Source of the DNA: Gilvimarinus xylanilyticus
GTDB taxonomy: Bacteria > Pseudomonadota > Gammaproteobacteria > Pseudomonadales > Cellvibrionaceae
Direction: 5' to 3'
Length of the DNA stretch: 44,336 nt
Assembly (NCBI RefSeq): GCF_024195295.1
Contig: NZ_JAMFTH010000009.1
Coordinates: 1-44,336 of the forward strand
This document shows positions 557 through 11,484 of this stretch, piece after piece; position 1 is the stretch's first letter, and every line of letters begins with the position of its first letter. The notes under the pieces were generated by a model, which was given only the letters and a program-made list of their open reading frames with translations, searched no databases and was not told the DNA's origin. Made by a program: the position numbers and the translations under genes.

Positions 557-3493
557 GTGACTAAACTCAAGTCGCTTGCCCAAGCCGTTAACGTTGAACA
601 GCTGTTGAAAACCAGCGCCTCTGTGTTGACCCTGAGTGCCTTAATGGCCCCCGCATGGGCGCAGACCGATACCGACACCACCGAGCCCGCCGAACAGGAA
701 ATTGCGCTGGAAGAAGTGGTGGTAATGGGCCAGCGTGCCAGCGTTATCTCGGCGCAAAACATCAAGCGTGACTCGCCCCAATTTGTGGACTCTATTGTCG
801 CGACCGATATCGGTAAGTTGCCGGATATGAACGTCGCCGAGTCGCTGCAGCGCATTTCGGGGGTGCAAATTACCCGCAATATGGGCGAGGGCAGCGGCAT
901 TGCCATTCGCGGCCTGACCCAGGTGCGCACCGAACTGAACGGTCGCTCCAGCTTTACTGCCAACGAAGGCCGCAGCCTGAGCTTTGAGGACGTTCCCTCT
1001 GAGTTGATGGCCGGGGTAGATGTGTACAAAAACCCCTCGGCGAAAATGATTGAGGGCGGCATTGGCGGCACCGTGGATTTGCGCACCTTTAAGCCCTTCG
1101 ACTTTGATGGCCGTAAAATCAGCGCCACCGTGGGCTCCACCTATTACGATCTGATCGACGAGTTCAACCCCAATGTATCCGGCCTGTTTAGTGACCGCTG
1201 GGATACCGGCATGGGTGAAATGGGCTTTATGATCAACGTCTCCTACCAGGAGGCGGCCTTCCGCCAGGACACCACCTCTATTGAGCCCTACTGGGAGCGC
1301 GACGCCGCCGAGTTTGGTGGCACCGAGGGTGAGAGTGTGTACGTACCCGCCGGCGGCGGTATTAACAGCTCCTTTGGCGATCGCGAGCGTTTGGGGGTGG
1401 CCTCGGCGTTCCAGTGGCGCCCCAACGATGATCTGGACATCTACGCCCAGTACATCCGCTCTGACTACACCATGAGCCTGTTTGACTATTCCTACTTTGC
1501 CTTTTTACCCGCCGAGGCGAGTGAGGGCGGCGATAACCTGGTGCCGTTTGATAACAGCGATTTTTCGTTTAACGACAAGGGCGAGATGTTGACCGGCTCG
1601 TTTGCCGGGGTGAATATTGACTCCAACACCGGGTTGAACAAACGTCACTCGATTACCGAAGATTTTGCGGTAGGGTTTGAATGGCAAACCAACGATAATC
1701 TCAACCTGAGCGGTGATGTGCAGCACGTTAAAGCCACCACCGAGGGTGAAAACTTTATTCTCAGCGTTAATGCTCAGGCCCCGGTGCTGGATGTGGATGT
1801 CACTACCAGCTTTCCGCAATTGGGAGTGCGCCCTTCAGATCCCAGCGACCCCGAATCGGCCGATTTATCCGATCCCGACAATTACAAGTGGAGCTGGTTG
1901 ATTCCGCACCACCAGGAAAGTGATGGCAGCCAGACCGCTGCGCGCTTTGACGGCGAGTGGGAGTTCCACGACGGCGGGTTTATCAGCGCGGTCTCGACCG
2001 GGGTGCGCTACTCGCACCGCGAAGCCACCACCAAATCCATGGAGTGGACGCCCTGGACCACAATCGATGCCCCGGCCTGGACCTGCACCGACTGGGCGAC
2101 CATGGGACCCAGCACACCCGAGTGTAACCCGGACAATCTCGACCCCTCAGACCCGGCTAACCAGGGCAGCTGGGGCGAGACCTTTTTGTTAGACGACCCG
2201 CGTTTTTACAACGACGACGGCAGCGCTAACTGGGCACAAAACCAGTTCACCGACTTTATGCGCGGCAGTGCCGATGCGTTTGGTTTGACTCTGGCCGCCT
2301 CATCCGACTTGGCCGGACGTTTCTCGGATGAAACCATTCGCTTTTTAACCGGCAATCACCCCAACCCCGAGTATCGCCTGGACGGCATTCCCGACTATGG
2401 CCCGCAGCAAATCAACGATCAGGAAGAAGACACCCTGGCCGCCTACGGCATGGTGAGCTTTGCCTCTGAGCTGCTGGGTATGCCGCTGGACGGTAATGTG
2501 GGCGTGCGGGTGGTGGAAACTCAAACCACCGCGCGCGGCGCCAATGCCTCGTGCGATGCCGATGGCAACAATTGCGAATACACCGACTCGATTTTCGAAA
2601 ACAAGTACACCAACACGCTGCCCAGCCTGAACCTGCGCTGGTCGCTGCAAGAAAACCTGTACCTGCGCTTTGCCGCCTCTAAGGGCATCAGCCGTCCCGG
2701 TTTCGACCAGATGGACCCCAACATCAACCTGAATGTATCGGTGGATAACGAGTCGGGCACCATTACCGACCTGAGCGCCTCGGGCGGTAACCCAGACTTG
2801 AAGCCCATGGAAGTGGCCCAGGCGGATGTGGCGCTGGAGTGGTATTTCTCGGATGCGGGCATGGCCTACGGCACCGTTTTCTACAAAGACGTGCAAAGCT
2901 TTATTGCCAACGGCACCGTGACTCGCGACTTTGAATACCAGAACCCACTGACAGGCGAGACCGAAACCGGCGCCTTTGATTCGGATATTCCGCTCAACGG
3001 TGAAGACGGCAAAATTGAAGGCTTTGAAGTGGGTGTTTCCGGCTTTTTCGACTTCCTGCCCGAGCCCTGGAATGGTCTGGGTGGCCAGGCGAACTACACC
3101 TACGTAGACAGTGAAGCCCCCAGCCCCTTCGCCACGGATATTCAGGGCAATGCGATGCTGGTGCCGCTGGAAGGCCTGTCGGAAAACAGCTACAACCTAG
3201 TGGGTATGTACGAATATGGCGACTGGTCGGTGCGTCTGGCCTACAACTGGCGCGACGATTACCTGGATACGACCGCCGGTACCGGTACCGGTAATCTGCC
3301 CATCTACAACGACGCCTATGGTCAGCTGGATGGCTCGATTAACTGGACCCTGAACGACACCTTCACCCTGCAGTTCGATGCCGTGAATATTACCGATTCG
3401 CGCAACGATACCTACCAGGGTTCATCGTCTCGCTATCGCGATAGCTATCTGGGCGATCGCCGCTACGGTGTGACTTTGCAAGCGGAGTTTTAA
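557..3493 (+). CDS. TonB-dependent outer-membrane receptor (Caulobacter type)
   Basis: Predicted outer-membrane beta-barrel that imports a large substrate with energy from TonB-ExbBD. The 978-residue product has a signal peptide ending near AWAQ (residue 36). A TonB-box-like EEVVV follows at 52-56. The plug domain has IAIRGL and a conserved MIEGGIGGTV segment, and a long barrel ends in a terminal Phe as BAM substrates do. Length and motifs fit the large receptor subfamily often linked to carbohydrate uptake. The start is GTG with GAGGAG about 8 nt upstream. It is followed by its own terminator and by a paralogous receptor and a halogenase-type gene, so the three probably serve one substrate. 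The ligand cannot be read from the sequence. The family call is secure; the role in glycan uptake is inferred. Confidence 0.93.
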   Translation: MTKLKSLAQAVNVEQLLKTSASVLTLSALMAPAWAQTDTDTTEPAEQEIALEEVVVMGQRASVISAQNIKRDSPQFVDSIVATDIGKLPDMNVAESLQRISGVQITRNMGEGSGIAIRGLTQVRTELNGRSSFTANEGRSLSFEDVPSELMAGVDVYKNPSAKMIEGGIGGTVDLRTFKPFDFDGRKISATVGSTYYDLIDEFNPNVSGLFSDRWDTGMGEMGFMINVSYQEAAFRQDTTSIEPYWERDAAEFGGTEGESVYVPAGGGINSSFGDRERLGVASAFQWRPNDDLDIYAQYIRSDYTMSLFDYSYFAFLPAEASEGGDNLVPFDNSDFSFNDKGEMLTGSFAGVNIDSNTGLNKRHSITEDFAVGFEWQTNDNLNLSGDVQHVKATTEGENFILSVNAQAPVLDVDVTTSFPQLGVRPSDPSDPESADLSDPDNYKWSWLIPHHQESDGSQTAARFDGEWEFHDGGFISAVSTGVRYSHREATTKSMEWTPWTTIDAPAWTCTDWATMGPSTPECNPDNLDPSDPANQGSWGETFLLDDPRFYNDDGSANWAQNQFTDFMRGSADAFGLTLAASSDLAGRFSDETIRFLTGNHPNPEYRLDGIPDYGPQQINDQEEDTLAAYGMVSFASELLGMPLDGNVGVRVVETQTTARGANASCDADGNNCEYTDSIFENKYTNTLPSLNLRWSLQENLYLRFAASKGISRPGFDQMDPNINLNVSVDNESGTITDLSASGGNPDLKPMEVAQADVALEWYFSDAGMAYGTVFYKDVQSFIANGTVTRDFEYQNPLTGETETGAFDSDIPLNGEDGKIEGFEVGVSGFFDFLPEPWNGLGGQANYTYVDSEAPSPFATDIQGNAMLVPLEGLSENSYNLVGMYEYGDWSVRLAYNWRDDYLDTTAGTGTGNLPIYNDAYGQLDGSINWTLNDTFTLQFDAVNITDSRNDTYQGSSSRYRDSYLGDRRYGVTLQAEF

Positions 3494-3533: not shown

Positions 3534-3819
3534 TTCTTTGATCCCTTCCCTATTCGGCCATCGCTCTAGATTGCGGTGCGCTATGCCCGCCTCAACCTTT
3601 TTGCGGTATCACTTTGGTATTGGTATTTATCTGATTTAATATCCATACGGTTTTACATAAGAAAATATTTGCGCCTGTAAAACATATAGGTTATAAATTA
3701 GACGGTGTATTTTTACAAATAAAAGCACTTTTTATAAATATAACCCAGTTTTATGCGTCGTACACCAAACCTGACAGACGGCGCTATCTGGAATCACACG
3801 ATAATAATAGGAGAGAACT
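3534..3819 (+). promoter_or_regulatory. Intergenic leader of the second receptor with promoter candidate
   Basis: No ORF is supported here. The left part is unremarkable; the right part is very AT-rich. TTTGCG (3668-3673), a 17-bp spacer and TTATAA (3691-3696) make a plausible sigma-70 promoter with a leader of about 120 nt. The sequence around it aligns closely with the orphan promoter near 8381-8430. Confidence 0.55.
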
Positions 3820-6774
3820 GTGATTGCTCACCCCTCAATCCGTCGTAATATGCGTCCATTGGCGAAAACCAGCGTATCTGCCCTGGTGTTATGCGCTCTG
3901 GGTGTTGTCGGCTCTGCCGTAGCGCAGGAAACTGATGAAGAACTCGCCATTGAAGAATTAGTTGTTACCGGCCAGCGCGCCAGTATTGAGTCTGCTCAGG
4001 AAATTAAACGCGATGCGGAAATGGTGATGGATTCCATTACCGCCGTAGACATTGGCGCCTTGCCCGACCGCTCGGTCGCCGAGGCCCTGCAGCGTGTGCC
4101 CGGGGTACAGCTGCAGCGCACTAACGAGGCCCGCGACCCGGCCCGTCTGGCCGCCGAGGGCGGTGATGTGTTTGTACGGGGCCTGAACTGGGTGCGTACC
4201 GAGCTGAATGGCCGCGATATTTTCTCGGCTTCCAACGGCCGCTCGCTGGGTTTTGAGGACGTCTCCGCCGACTTAATGGCCGGGGTAGACGTGTATAAAG
4301 CCCCCACTGCCGACATGATTGAAGGCGGTATTGGCGGCACGGTTAACCTGCGTACCCGCAAGCCGTTTGACTCGGACGACATGATTATCGCCGCTTCGGC
4401 TGATTACAACTACGCCGAGCTGTACGAAGAGGGCTTCCCCTCGTTTAACGGTTTGTTCAGCAACCGCTGGGATACTGCCATCGGTGAAATTGGCTTTTTG
4501 GTGTCGGCCAGTGTGGCCGAGATTGGCAACCGTACCGACAGTATTCAAACTGGCCGCTACGTGGGTTATGACGCCAATGGTGAGGCCTCTAGCGCCAGTG
4601 GTCTGGCGGCACAAAACTACCTGCCCAATGGTTTGGGATTCCGCCGTATTGATTGGGAACAAGAGCGTGATTCACTGGCTGGGGTGTTGCAGTGGGCGCC
4701 TACCGATACCCTGGAATTTACCCTGGAAGCGATTCAAACTTCGGCCTACGCCGAAGATATCGAGCGCGCTGTGGGCCTAAATGCCGACTGGGGTAATGAC
4801 ATCATGCCCTGGAACGGTGATTTCACATACGACGACGAAGGCTTCTTAACCGGCGGCACACTCTTTAACGCCGGCATGAGCAACAACCTGCGTTACGGCG
4901 AGCGCGACGCCGAAACCAGCGACTACTCTTTCGCGGTCGAGTATGCCCCCACCGAAAACTGGACCATTAAAGGCGATCTGCAATACGTCGACTCTACTAC
5001 CGCAGTGCTGAGCAACGCGTTGTTTACGCAATTGGCGGGCGAAGAGCGCGGACCGTCGTCCAACTCAAACGTTGAGGTGGACTTCGGCTTTGGCAGCGAC
5101 CCCTGGATGGACGTGACCGACGACACTCGCCAAGCGCAGCAAAGCGCCTACTGGTGGGGCGCGGCCATGGACCATATTGAAGACAACGAAGCTGACTCGC
5201 TGGCGGGCCGGGTGGATGTGGATTATCACTTTACCGATAGCGACTTCATGCGCAGTGTATCTGTGGGTGTGCGCCACTCGGATCGTGAAGCCATTACCCG
5301 TCAATCTGGTTGGAACTGGTCGCTGCTAAACAACCAATTCTGGGGCGGTGCACCAACCCCCGAAGACATTGTTTACCTGGATCAAGACACCCAGGACGGA
5401 ACCGAGCTATACACCTTTGATAACTTTTACGGGGGTGATACCGATGCGCCTGCAGTGGGTTGGTTTCCCACTTATGAGCTAACTCGCGATCCCAACTACG
5501 CTTACGAACAATTGGCTGACGTGCAGCGTGCTGGTTGGGGCTGGGTGCCTTTGGACCCTGAAACCGCTTACGACTTGAACCCTCGGGCGGATAACGTGAG
5601 TGCCGGTATCAACAACCAAAACGAAGTGAACACTGCCGCTTATGTGATGGCGCGTTTTGGCGATGACGGCGGGGATCTGTTTGGCATTCCGTTTGACGGT
5701 AATGTCGGTGTGCGCTTCGTTGAAACCGAACTGACCGCCCGTGGCCGCTCCGCAGCTGGTGGCGCGGGTGATTCGTGCGCGGCCAACCCATCGGCCGACT
5801 GTGACGGCGCCCAGGCTTTTGCCGATGCCTACAATGCCGCCTACGGCGAATACGCCGATTACACGCACAGCTATACCAACGTACTGCCCAGTCTGAACTT
5901 GCGCTTTGGTATAACCGAGCAGTTGCAAGCGCGCTTTGGTTTATCGCGTGCGATGGTTCGTCCCGGCTTCCACCAAACTCAGCCGTATACCACTCTCGGC
6001 TTTGATTTTATGGATAACGCCTTTGATCCTAACACCCCTTACGAGGGTACGGGTACTGGGGGTAACTATGAGCTCGAGCCCACGGTATCGGATCAGATTG
6101 ACCTGAGTCTGGAGTACTACTTTGGCAATGCCAACAGTGTGACTCTGGCGCTGTTCCACAAAGATATTGAAGATTACATTGCCACTACTAACCAAGTTGA
6201 AAGTATCACCTCGGGTGGACAAACCTACGACTTCGAAGTCACCCGTCAGGTGAACGCAGCCGAAGGTAAGCTGCAGGGCGCCGAACTGGCTTACCAGCAG
6301 TTTTTCGATATGCTGCCCAGCCCGTTTGATGGTTTAGGGGTGCAAGCTAACTACACCTTTATCGACAACGAAGGCGGTATGAACCAGGCGGTTAACATCT
6401 TTGAGGCGCCGCAGGTTGAAGGCTCTACCGATGAGTCGTTGCCCATTGAAGGTATATCGGACAACAGCTACAACCTGACATTGATGTACGAAAAGTACGA
6501 TGTGTCAGCGCGTTTGGCCTACAACTGGCGCGAGCGCTACCTGCTGACTACCTCGGCGGCGAACATTAACCGTCCGGTCTGGTTTGATGACTATGGTCAG
6601 CTGGATGGCTCGGTGTTCTACACCATTAACGACAATGTGAAGGTCGGTCTGCAGGTGACTAACCTGACCGCCGAGTCTACCAAGCTGGAAGTGGGCGACA
6701 CTCAAATCGCCGGCGATTACAGCTGGACTCAGGGTGACCGTCGCATTGCCTTTGTGGTGCGTACGCAGTTTTAA
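3820..6774 (+). CDS. TonB-dependent outer-membrane receptor, paralogue of the first
   Basis: A 984-residue TonB-dependent transporter. The signal peptide ends near AVAQ (residue 36) and a TonB-box-like EELVVTG follows at 45-51. The plug domain shares the segment around GFEDV, LMAGVDVYK and MIEGGIGGTV with the upstream receptor, so the two are clear paralogues. The C-terminus ends in Phe, as expected for a BAM-folded barrel. The GTG start has AGGAGAG 5 nt upstream. The extracellular loop regions differ strongly between the paralogues, which suggests different ligands or different lengths of the same polymer. It has a separate promoter and a terminator, so the two receptors can be expressed independently. 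The ligand is unknown. Confidence 0.93.
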   Translation: MIAHPSIRRNMRPLAKTSVSALVLCALGVVGSAVAQETDEELAIEELVVTGQRASIESAQEIKRDAEMVMDSITAVDIGALPDRSVAEALQRVPGVQLQRTNEARDPARLAAEGGDVFVRGLNWVRTELNGRDIFSASNGRSLGFEDVSADLMAGVDVYKAPTADMIEGGIGGTVNLRTRKPFDSDDMIIAASADYNYAELYEEGFPSFNGLFSNRWDTAIGEIGFLVSASVAEIGNRTDSIQTGRYVGYDANGEASSASGLAAQNYLPNGLGFRRIDWEQERDSLAGVLQWAPTDTLEFTLEAIQTSAYAEDIERAVGLNADWGNDIMPWNGDFTYDDEGFLTGGTLFNAGMSNNLRYGERDAETSDYSFAVEYAPTENWTIKGDLQYVDSTTAVLSNALFTQLAGEERGPSSNSNVEVDFGFGSDPWMDVTDDTRQAQQSAYWWGAAMDHIEDNEADSLAGRVDVDYHFTDSDFMRSVSVGVRHSDREAITRQSGWNWSLLNNQFWGGAPTPEDIVYLDQDTQDGTELYTFDNFYGGDTDAPAVGWFPTYELTRDPNYAYEQLADVQRAGWGWVPLDPETAYDLNPRADNVSAGINNQNEVNTAAYVMARFGDDGGDLFGIPFDGNVGVRFVETELTARGRSAAGGAGDSCAANPSADCDGAQAFADAYNAAYGEYADYTHSYTNVLPSLNLRFGITEQLQARFGLSRAMVRPGFHQTQPYTTLGFDFMDNAFDPNTPYEGTGTGGNYELEPTVSDQIDLSLEYYFGNANSVTLALFHKDIEDYIATTNQVESITSGGQTYDFEVTRQVNAAEGKLQGAELAYQQFFDMLPSPFDGLGVQANYTFIDNEGGMNQAVNIFEAPQVEGSTDESLPIEGISDNSYNLTLMYEKYDVSARLAYNWRERYLLTTSAANINRPVWFDDYGQLDGSVFYTINDNVKVGLQVTNLTAESTKLEVGDTQIAGDYSWTQGDRRIAFVVRTQF

Positions 6775-6782
6775 GCCCGCCT

Positions 6783-6817
6783 GCCACCTCTGGCCCTTGT
6801 GCCAGGGGTGGCTTTTT
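6783..6817 (+). terminator. Rho-independent terminator after the second receptor
   Basis: GCCACCTCTGGC (6783-6794) pairs with GCCAGGGGTGGC (6801-6812), with one wobble pair, followed by TTTTT. It lies between the receptor and the halogenase gene, so the halogenase may depend on read-through or on its own weak promoter. Confidence 0.8.
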
Positions 6818-6858: not shown

Positions 6859-8364
6859 ATGAGTCACCCGCAGATTAACAATATCCTTATTCTCGGTGGC
6901 GGCACCGCCGGCTGGATGGCCGCTGCCGCGATGAGTAAATTTTTCGCCGGGCAGCCGGTTAGCATTCAACTCGTAGAGTCGCCCGAGCTTGGCACCGTGG
7001 GGGTAGGCGAGGCCACCGTACCGGTTATCCGCCAGTTCAATCGCTATCTCGGGCTGGACGAAGACAGCTTTATTCGCCGCACTCAGGGCAGTTTTAAACT
7101 GGGTATTGAGTTCTGTGATTGGCTTCAACCCGGCAGCCGTTATTTTCATGGCTTTGGCGATTTCGGAGCCGCTGTGCAGGGCGTGCCTGCGCACCAGCTG
7201 TGGCTGCGCTCGCAGGCGCTGGGTAACCAGGCGTCTTTGCTGGATTACTGCTTTGCCGCGCAAGCTGCGCGCCATAATTGCTTTGCACCGCCACCCGATG
7301 AACCCCGCCTGGCCGCTATTGCCGCCTTTGATTACGCCTATCACTTTGATGCCGGCCTCTACGCTCAGCTGTTGCGAGAGTGGGCCTGTGAGCGGGGGGT
7401 TGAGCATCTACAGGGGCAGATACAAGGTGCAAACCTAGACCCCGGTAACGGCGATGTGGCCTCTGTCGGCCTTGCGGATGGCCGCACCCTTAACGCCGAC
7501 TTTTTTATTGATTGCACCGGCTTTCACGCCCAGTTGATGCACTGCGCGCTTCAGGTGCCCTATTGCAACTGGAGTGCTCATCTACCCTGCAACCGCGCCC
7601 TGGCGTTGGCCTGTGAGCGCCGCGAACCCTTGACGCCCTATACCCGTGCCACCGCGCGCAGTGCGGGGTGGCAGTGGCGTATTCCTCTGCAGCACCGGGT
7701 GGGTAATGGCCTGGTGTACGCCAGCGATTATTTAAGCGATGAGCGGGCCGAGCGCGAGTTGCGCCACAACTTGGAGGGCGATGCCATTGGCGATATCAAG
7801 CGCCTGCGTTTTACCACCGGCCACCGTGAACACTTTTGGTATCGCAACACTCTGGCATTGGGGCTGGCTGCGGGCTTTTTAGAGCCCCTTGAGTCCACCA
7901 GCATTCAGTTGATTCAAACGGGTTTATTACGCTTTTGGGAACTGTTGCCGAGCGGCGCCAACCCCGCCTCGGTGCAAGACGAGTACAACCGAATTACTCG
8001 GGCCGAGTACGAGCGTCTGCGGGATTTTCTTATCTTGCACTACTGCACTAACCAACGCCCCGGTAGCGACTTTTGGCGCTACTGTCGCGAGCAAGCTTTG
8101 CCCGCTGCCTTGGCCCATAAAATAGCGGTATTTCGCGACTCGGGCAGGGTGCCTTTATACGATAACGAGTCTTATAGTGAGGCCAGTTGGGTCGCTATAT
8201 TGACGGGCCAAAATATAATGCCTCAGCACTGGGCTTTGCAGGCCGATCAGATGCCAGCGTCACAACTTGTGCAACTACTGGAGCAGCGCCGTCGCGATAT
8301 TGCCGCTATTGTCAGCAAAATGCCCTCACACGAGTACTACCTGGAGCATTTAGCTGCTCACTGA
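6859..8364 (+). CDS. Flavin-dependent tryptophan-halogenase-family protein
   Basis: A 501-residue flavoprotein of the tryptophan halogenase family, which in characterised members uses FADH2, O2 and halide to chlorinate or brominate an aromatic ring. The FAD-binding GGGTAGW is at residues 13-19. K80 matches the catalytic lysine, the WxWxIP signature is at 271-276, and E345 in LEPLEST matches the catalytic glutamate of PrnA. All key residues are present, so it is probably active. It lies behind two TonB-dependent receptors. This pairing recurs in polysaccharide-uptake loci of Caulobacter, Xanthomonas and Shewanella relatives, where the true substrate is mostly unknown. No flavin reductase is visible nearby, so FADH2 must come from elsewhere. 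The family is certain; the substrate is not. Confidence 0.9.
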   Translation: MSHPQINNILILGGGTAGWMAAAAMSKFFAGQPVSIQLVESPELGTVGVGEATVPVIRQFNRYLGLDEDSFIRRTQGSFKLGIEFCDWLQPGSRYFHGFGDFGAAVQGVPAHQLWLRSQALGNQASLLDYCFAAQAARHNCFAPPPDEPRLAAIAAFDYAYHFDAGLYAQLLREWACERGVEHLQGQIQGANLDPGNGDVASVGLADGRTLNADFFIDCTGFHAQLMHCALQVPYCNWSAHLPCNRALALACERREPLTPYTRATARSAGWQWRIPLQHRVGNGLVYASDYLSDERAERELRHNLEGDAIGDIKRLRFTTGHREHFWYRNTLALGLAAGFLEPLESTSIQLIQTGLLRFWELLPSGANPASVQDEYNRITRAEYERLRDFLILHYCTNQRPGSDFWRYCREQALPAALAHKIAVFRDSGRVPLYDNESYSEASWVAILTGQNIMPQHWALQADQMPASQLVQLLEQRRRDIAAIVSKMPSHEYYLEHLAAH

Positions 8365-8380
8365 CAATCTTGCCGCTAGT

Positions 8381-8582
8381 TTTTATATAAAAATGTTTGC
8401 ACAAGTAAAAAATATCAGTTATAAAATAGCTGTACTTAGCAACATTACCCCGATAGATACGGTGCGACGTATTTACCGGCTAAGCAAACGTACCAAACAC
8501 GGAGACTGACTCCGCTATACATGAGCTGATGTTTTGCATCGTTAATGGGCGGCGCTTGCCCCGGCAAGCGCCGCATTTTTTT
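8381..8582 (+). ncRNA. Orphan receptor-type promoter plus leader ending in a terminator (sRNA or gene scar)
   Basis: TTTGCA (8396-8401), a 17-bp spacer and TTATAA (8419-8424) repeat the promoter of the second receptor, and the flanking bases align with it over about 50 nt. Further downstream, CGTACCAAAC and CCGCTATA resemble the leader of that receptor. No receptor gene follows; a perfect terminator comes after about 150 nt. Either a small RNA is made from here, or a receptor gene was deleted leaving promoter and terminator fused. No convincing peptide frame exists in the stretch. Confidence 0.4.
8549..8582 (+). terminator. Strong Rho-independent terminator
   Basis: A perfect 11-bp GC-rich stem forms between 8549-8559 and 8564-8574 with a 4-nt loop, followed by A and seven T. 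It can end transcripts from the halogenase gene and from the orphan promoter upstream. Between it and the next gene (8583-8748) I see no further gene. Confidence 0.9.
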
Positions 8583-8748
8583 GCCACTTTTACGCTCACG
8601 CTTTCCTATTTACACGACTCGCCGTGTTTCTCTTATCAACGGGCCCTATATAGCCTAAGCTTTACAGATATATTCACCCGAACAGGGCTCGGCGCAAACC
8701 TTGCTTCCTGTATTAAGTTAAATGGATTAGCCAAAAGGGGAATCAACC

Positions 8749-11484
<2,736 letters not shown>

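What the first reader, a model, noticed from the sequence alone, without database searches (positions are those of the whole stretch)
8381..8582. Orphan copy of the receptor promoter with a leader and strong terminator but no gene
The promoter and about 50 nt around it align with the region before the second TonB-dependent receptor, with the same 17-bp spacing between TTTGCR and TTATAA, and parts of the leader also match. A perfect terminator follows about 150 nt later. Two readings are possible: a small RNA co-regulated with the receptors, which might pair with their leaders because of the shared sequence, or the scar of a deleted third receptor.
Basis: partly seen in the sequence, partly recalled or inferred. 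Interest (0 to 1): 0.75.

Follow-up and report, generated by a model that had tools for sequence, protein, structure and literature searches.

The report
Conserved small RNA beside carbohydrate receptors
The gene-less stretch with a promoter and a terminator looks like a real, previously undescribed small RNA gene that several species of the marine bacterium Gilvimarinus keep at the same place, probably switched on together with neighbouring outer-membrane receptors, and not the remains of a deleted receptor; what it regulates is not yet known.

Summary
Window genome: Gilvimarinus xylanilyticus HB14 (size and contig count match). Orphan promoter, absence of a gene and perfect terminator are confirmed. 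The promoter block matches that of receptor 2 beyond chance (0 of 500 shuffles); the claimed leader match does not (128 of 500). The unit sits upstream of acnA in 5 of 8 Gilvimarinus genomes; its motif is in none of 136 other genomes of the family. All five copies have a promoter, a variable 5' part, a conserved CATGAGYTGATG-N5-6-CATCRTT module and a terminator whose stem sequence differs while pairing is kept. An operator-like 26-nt pattern occurs 15 times in 8 genomes, 14 of them at this cassette: GH95 and receptor promoters and, in the window, the orphan. No genus genome has a third receptor here. The scar reading fails; the co-regulated small-RNA reading is supported; pairing with the receptor leaders is not. 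No target was found. Best explanation: a trans-acting, probably Hfq-assisted sRNA co-induced with a GH95/TonB-receptor cassette. Transcription and targets are untested. New member of a known kind.

The parts
8385..8410 (+). operator-like block ATANNAAANNNNTTGYNCNNRTAAAA, overlapping the -35 of the orphan RNA gene
   Evidence: exact match; 15 hits with up to 1 mismatch in 8 genomes, 14 at this cassette, reversed control 1 hit; orphan against receptor promoter block: 0, 9, 0, 8, 0 of 500 shuffles in five species
8397..8425 (+). predicted promoter: TTGCAC (8397-8402), 17 nt, TATAAA (8420-8425)
   Evidence: same spacing in all five orphan copies (-10 TATAAG in G003)
8432..8582 (+). predicted small RNA, about 151 nt (start assumed 6 nt after the -10, end at the last T of the terminator)
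   Evidence: no shuffle of 200 folds as well in the window
8500..8514 (+). hairpin H1 (CGGAG-ACTGA-CTCCG), variable in sequence between species
   Evidence: not significant alone (93 of 500 shuffles)
8515..8546 (+). conserved module: linker CTATACATGAGC and hairpin H2 (8527-8541)
   Evidence: 18 of 32 positions identical in five species
8549..8582 (+). intrinsic terminator, stem 8549-8574, T tract to 8582; may also end halogenase read-through
3657..3682 (+). same operator-like block before receptor 2
   Evidence: 0 mismatches
3668..3697 (+). receptor 2 promoter TTTGC-N19-TATAAA
557..3493 (+). TonB-dependent receptor 1 (TIGR01782 type)
3820..6774 (+). TonB-dependent receptor 2 (TIGR01782 type)
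6859..8364 (+). tryptophan-halogenase-like flavoprotein
   Evidence: PF04820 E 4.1e-170
8749..11484 (+). acnA, aconitate hydratase; fixed downstream neighbour of the RNA gene

Best explanation
The stretch is a small RNA gene, about 151 nt in this strain, that belongs to a GH95 / TonB-receptor (/ halogenase) cassette lying upstream of acnA in Gilvimarinus. Shown by sequence: a promoter with the cassette's own operator-like block, no shared reading frame, a conserved linker-hairpin module, a structure-conserved terminator, and conservation at the same place in five species. Inferred: the RNA is made when the unknown regulator of the cassette switches on the receptors. It is stabilised by its terminator hairpin and U tail, probably with Hfq. 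It acts in trans by base pairing through the conserved single-stranded linker UACAUGAGYUGAUG on mRNAs outside the cassette, so that uptake of this substrate is coordinated with other uptake or central metabolism. In four of the five species it lies directly behind the halogenase gene, so its terminator probably also ends that transcript.
For: Motif CATGAGYTGATGN5-6CATCRTT: 5 of 144 family genomes, all Gilvimarinus, all just upstream of acnA, single copy; 0 of 136 others; no control hits; none in 100 shuffles of the window. Covariance model of it: five genus hits with E up to 1.3e-5, next hit 0.009. Promoter with the same 17-nt spacing in all five. Promoter block like the receptor promoter of the same genome: 0, 9, 0, 8, 0 of 500 shuffles (window, G003, G007, G001, G004). 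Operator-like pattern at this cassette in 14 of 15 hits. Whole predicted RNA folds better than shuffles in all five: z -2.2 to -5.2; 0, 6, 0, 2, 3 of 200 shuffles. Between G003 and G007 the RNA body is 85-92% identical and 29 of 29 aligned motif bases are, against 75 of 127 aligned bases in the spacer behind it; H1 and terminator stems differ but keep pairing, with one and two compensatory pairs read from the folds. One compensatory pair in H2. Hfq gene in 8 of 8 genomes.
Against: No transcript data. 3 of 8 genus genomes lack it, two of which (G002, G005) keep the receptor. Predicted length varies from 151 to 288 nt. H1 alone is not significant (54 to 150 of 500 shuffles). H2's one compensatory pair is no more than shuffling gives with five rows (153 of 500). 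The orphan promoters of the other four species do not match the operator-like pattern at up to 1 mismatch, nor does receptor 1. The 5' part alone folds better than shuffles in three of five species only (27 and 43 of 200 shuffles reach it in G003 and G004). No target: no conserved full complement, no better-than-background pairing with neighbours. No Rfam family.
Confidence: 0.6

Rival explanations
1. A 3'-end element of the halogenase transcript (terminator and mRNA-stabilising hairpin, or a processed 3'UTR RNA), the promoter being secondary.
For: In the window only 15 nt lie between the halogenase stop and the shared AT-rich block; halogenase also directly in front in G003, G007 and G004. 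The scan shows no other + strand terminator between halogenase stop and motif in the window.
Against: In G001 there is no halogenase at this place and the receptor has a terminator of its own (L103 13761-13788, 12 pairs) before the RNA promoter, yet promoter and motif are kept. G002 keeps the halogenase and lacks the element.
Confidence: 0.15
2. A short regulated leader with a conditional terminator for acnA: transcription starts at the orphan promoter and runs into acnA when the terminator is opened.
For: Always just upstream of acnA on the same strand.
Against: A TTTAC box and some further columns between terminator and acnA are invariant in all eight genomes with or without the RNA, which hints at a promoter of acnA's own (weak, mean column identity 50%). 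The terminator stem changes freely while the motif does not, and the motif is not complementary to the stem by eye, so no antiterminator partner is visible.
Confidence: 0.12
3. A short mRNA for a small protein.
For: ATG AGY TGA is kept in the motif of all five; in G001, G003 and G007 longer frames end there.
Against: No such frame of 9 codons or more with ATG/GTG/TTG start in the window or G004; no ribosome-binding site seen by eye before the ATG AGY TGA.
Confidence: 0.06
4. Scar of a deleted third receptor: promoter and leader remained after loss of the gene.
For: Promoter block like that of receptor 2.
Against: No receptor between halogenase and acnA in any of 8 genus genomes; leader similarity not above chance; the motif and a structure-conserved terminator are kept in a species whose acnA protein is only 83% identical.
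Confidence: 0.04

Closest known systems
FopS sRNA family of Bacteroides thetaiotaomicron (abstract of PMC11697453)
   Same: small RNAs tied to glycan uptake; they repress SusC-like glycan transporters
   Different: a family of 14 paralogs in another phylum; here one copy inside one cassette, no pairing with the neighbouring receptors found
DonS-type antisense RNAs of Bacteroides PULs (passages of PMC7366714)
   Same: RNA gene belonging to a locus with a SusC-like receptor
   Different: DonS types are divergently encoded cis-antisense RNAs; here same strand, downstream of the receptor genes
ChvR and CrfA of Caulobacter crescentus (abstracts of PMC6237742 and PMC12559287)
   Same: proteobacterial sRNAs; ChvR represses a TonB-dependent receptor, CrfA is induced by carbon starvation
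   Different: ChvR is under a two-component system and CrfA is a sponge for other sRNAs; here the promoter block is shared with the receptor cassette; their sequences were not compared here
sRNA genes with their own promoter behind a coding gene, sharing its terminator (recalled class, from no call)
   Same: own promoter directly behind a coding gene
   Different: promoter block shared with the genes in front of it

Membership tests
bacterial small regulatory RNA gene | own promoter in an intergenic stretch | tested here: met
   sequence level only:
bacterial small regulatory RNA gene | Rho-independent terminator | tested here: met
   all five species
bacterial small regulatory RNA gene | no conserved reading frame | tested here: met
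bacterial small regulatory RNA gene | conserved in relatives more than its surroundings | tested here: met
   5 of 8 genus genomes
bacterial small regulatory RNA gene | transcript detected | not testable with these tools
   no expression data held
Hfq-dependent trans-acting sRNA | Hfq present in the organism | tested here: met
   8 of 8
Hfq-dependent trans-acting sRNA | binds Hfq | not testable with these tools
   needs co-immunoprecipitation
Hfq-dependent trans-acting sRNA | conserved pairing with a target mRNA | tested here: inconclusive
   only neighbours and an exact 12-mer complement genome-wide were tested; none found
any Rfam family | match to a covariance model | tested here: not met
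DonS-type antisense RNA | encoded antisense to the receptor gene | tested here: not met
   same strand, downstream
FopS family | multi-copy family | tested here: not met
   single copy in all five
leader of acnA | acnA depends on the orphan promoter | tested here: inconclusive
   invariant columns before acnA also in genomes without the RNA; not decisive without transcripts
scar of a deleted receptor | receptor present here in a relative, leader homologous | tested here: not met

The most novel reading that the evidence does not exclude
A regulatory RNA built into a proteobacterial carbohydrate-uptake cassette and driven by the cassette's own operator, which when the substrate is present turns down competing TonB-dependent receptors or central carbon genes elsewhere: an RNA arm of substrate priority in Cellvibrionaceae, comparable in role to, but not derived from, the Bacteroides FopS/DonS RNAs.
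Probability: 0.25. Interest if true: 0.7.

Novelty: new member of a known kind. Interest (0 to 1): 0.45.

Why it matters
Small RNAs that act on glycan-uptake systems are described in Bacteroides and, for single receptors, in Caulobacter. A search of the held papers for Gilvimarinus together with sRNA found none. A conserved RNA tied to a GH95/TonB-receptor cassette gives a small, testable case in marine polysaccharide degraders. The cassette also exposes a dedicated operator-like sequence kept in front of receptors that are only about 36-47% identical to one another's counterparts, which makes the unknown regulator searchable.

Tried and rejected
Rfam: no match in the window, in 8364-8748 at E up to 1, or in seven relatives' loci at gathering score. 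Blastn of 237 bases in the plasmid collection: none. Blastn of the stretch in 58 genomes of relatives: only the window's own and one weak match, G001, which led to the motif. Weak covariance-model hits outside the genus: all 14 were read; 12 lie in open frames of 238 codons or more, L130 and L138 do not; with 144 genomes searched an E of 0.009 is expected by chance; only the 50 best first-look candidates of each genome were scored, so distant relatives may be missed. Genome-collection scan with the motif: 17 stretches, 3 Gilvimarinus and 14 in other bacteria and archaea, about the number expected by chance on my own estimate of 15.

Local pairing: the linker against start regions gave 16 tests with background fractions from 0.015 to 0.993; two were at or below 0.05 (receptor 2 of G003, halogenase of G007), without agreement between species. 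Some start coordinates in that call were off: halogenase of G003 and G007 by 18 and 15 nt, receptor of G001 by 1 and acnA of G004 by 3; the halogenase start of G004 is unsure. The repeat with the whole RNA used alignment starts for the halogenases, kept the small offsets in G001 and G004, left GH95 out, and depends on base composition, so it has little power. Exact 12-mer complement of the linker: 10 hits in 8 genomes against 3 controls, 5 of them the RNA gene itself; the other 5 (G002, G005, three in G001) lie in different surroundings. The looser pattern TTTGC-N19-TATAAA gave 42 hits in 8 genomes against 18 controls, 7 at this cassette, so it is weak alone. The 22-nt block with up to 3 mismatches gave 10 hits, 7 at this cassette, against 6 controls. 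Gain and loss on the acnA tree: two changes, no clustering beyond shuffles (158 of 500), so the age of the RNA within the genus is unsettled. My first idea that the cassette always lies between sco1 and acnA was wrong: it does in G001, G002, G004 and G005, not in G003 and G007.

Full report
What was claimed.

Where it is. The genome that holds the window has 3,930,865 bases in 13 contigs; these numbers are those of Gilvimarinus xylanilyticus HB14 (passages of PMC9638140). Around the stretch lie two TonB-dependent receptors of the TIGR01782 type (557-3493 and 3820-6774), a tryptophan-halogenase-like gene (6859-8364) and acnA (8749-11484).

The observation. The block up to the -10 is shared with receptor 2 (score 53, 0 of 500 shuffles; 62 over the whole stretch, 0 of 2000 shuffles). 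Written as TTGCRC-17 nt-TATAAA it has canonical spacing. The terminator is a perfect 26-nt hairpin followed by T's. The further claim that the leader also matches does not hold: beyond the -10 the best match is reached by 128 of 500 shuffles.

Relatives. The genus is represented by eight genomes. The exact motif is single-copy, found in 5 of 144 genomes of the family and in none of the 136 outside the genus. A covariance model gives the same answer, with 14 further hits of E 0.009-0.5 outside the genus that I judge to be chance. G002, G005 and G006 lack it. G006 has neither receptor nor halogenase in the 12.9 kb before acnA; there sco1 is the last gene before acnA. G002 and G005 keep a receptor but not the RNA. 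On the acnA tree this needs at least two changes: one origin with two losses, or several gains.

The cassette. A GH95 gene stands before the receptor(s) in the six relatives that have the cassette (Pfam); window contig 13 begins before receptor 1, so GH95 is not seen there. The gene before GH95 is sco1 in G001, G002, G004 and G005, but an LPMO10 gene on the other strand in G003 and a copper/zinc superoxide dismutase gene on the other strand in G007. So the cassette stays with acnA, not with sco1. The receptors at this place are not all orthologs: receptor 2 is 84-90% identical in G002, G003 and G007, but the receptors of G001, G004 and G005 are only about 36-47% identical to receptors 1 or 2, while acnA is 83-96% identical over the genus. 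Even so similar promoter blocks stand before all of them and before GH95. The pattern ATANNAAANNNNTTGYNCNNRTAAAA with up to one mismatch has 15 hits in the eight genomes: 14 at this cassette (GH95 and receptor in six relatives, receptor 2 and orphan in the window), one on another contig in G006; the reversed control has one hit. I derived the pattern by eye from these promoters, so the hits that it was made from count as fit; the absence of others is the test. Receptor 1 and the orphan promoters of the other four species do not reach this pattern, although each of those orphan promoters resembles the receptor promoter of its own genome (9, 0, 8, 0 of 500 shuffles for G003, G007, G001, G004).

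The RNA. With a start assumed 6 nt after the -10, the predicted RNAs are 151, 283, 288, 233 and 183 nt long (window, G003, G007, G001, G004). All fold better than their shuffles (0, 6, 0, 2, 3 of 200). A hairpin of different sequence (H1) ends a few bases before the motif in each, not significant alone (93, 140, 150, 54, 85 of 500). The motif gives a conserved linker and a small hairpin (H2) in which all 30 cells pair, with one compensatory pair; with five rows this is no more than shuffling gives (153 of 500). The terminators have different stems in the five species. Between G003 and G007 the two halves of the 5' part are 85% and 92% identical, the aligned motif bases 29 of 29 (3 gap columns), the spacer behind the terminator 75 of 127 aligned bases and the last 60 bases before acnA 47 of 59; H1 changes with one compensatory pair and the terminator with two. 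No reading frame with a start codon is common to the five. Rfam has no match.

How it most likely works. Shown at sequence level: a conserved, terminated, apparently non-coding transcription unit with the promoter block of its cassette. Inferred: it is co-induced with the receptors and acts as a trans-acting sRNA through its conserved linker, probably with Hfq, which all eight genomes encode. The targets are not the neighbours as far as predicted pairing can tell (0 of 16 start regions at or below 0.05 of background; 2 of 16, in different genes, with the linker alone; both calls have limits told under tried and rejected), and no full complement of the linker shared between species exists in the genus. 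I put the RNA gene itself at about 0.85 and the base-pairing mechanism at about 0.5 to 0.6.

Rivals. A 3'-end element of the halogenase transcript remains possible, since the unit begins 15 nt behind the halogenase stop; but in G001 it exists without a halogenase and behind a receptor with its own terminator. An acnA leader is made less likely, not excluded, by invariant columns before acnA that are kept with or without the RNA. A scar is disfavoured by the absence of a third receptor in all eight genomes and by the conserved RNA features. A small protein has no common frame.

What is known. Bacteroides has PUL-linked antisense RNAs (DonS; passages of PMC7366714) and the FopS family that represses SusC-like transporters (abstract of PMC11697453). 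Caulobacter ChvR represses a TonB-dependent receptor (abstract of PMC6237742), and CrfA is a sponge RNA induced by carbon starvation (abstract of PMC12559287). Gilvimarinus occurs in 36 held papers (30 listed) and none holds both Gilvimarinus and sRNA. The kind is known; this member appears undescribed as far as these searches reach.

Noticed in passing
window 3657-3682; relatives' receptor and GH95 promoters (L101-L105, L107): An operator-like block of about 26 nt, nearly confined to this cassette, stands before GH95 and before receptors that are not orthologs of each other; no regulator gene was recognised among the cassette genes that I scanned.
   Followed up: partly
leaders of the receptors, e.g. 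L102 8693-8730, L107 8919-8960: A second AT-rich copy of the left half of the block (ATAAGAAAATATTTTT-like) lies downstream of the -10 in several receptor leaders and, less clearly, in the RNA genes of G001, G003 and G007: possibly a second regulator site.
   Followed up: no
window 6783-6812: A strong terminator separates receptor 2 from the halogenase gene, so the halogenase is probably fed by partial read-through or by its own promoter.
   Followed up: no
G000 whole genome: 14 places encode relatives of this halogenase (E up to 1e-60); 12 to 19 in each of the eight Gilvimarinus genomes.
   Followed up: no
receptor leaders just before the ribosome-binding site, e.g. window 3800-3815: A GATAATAA-like stretch before GGAG recurs in leaders of non-orthologous receptors of the cassette.
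   Followed up: no
L101, L102 (G003, G007) against L103, L104, L105, L107: The cassette and acnA are a unit with different upstream neighbours: sco1 in four species, LPMO10 or superoxide dismutase in two.
   Followed up: partly
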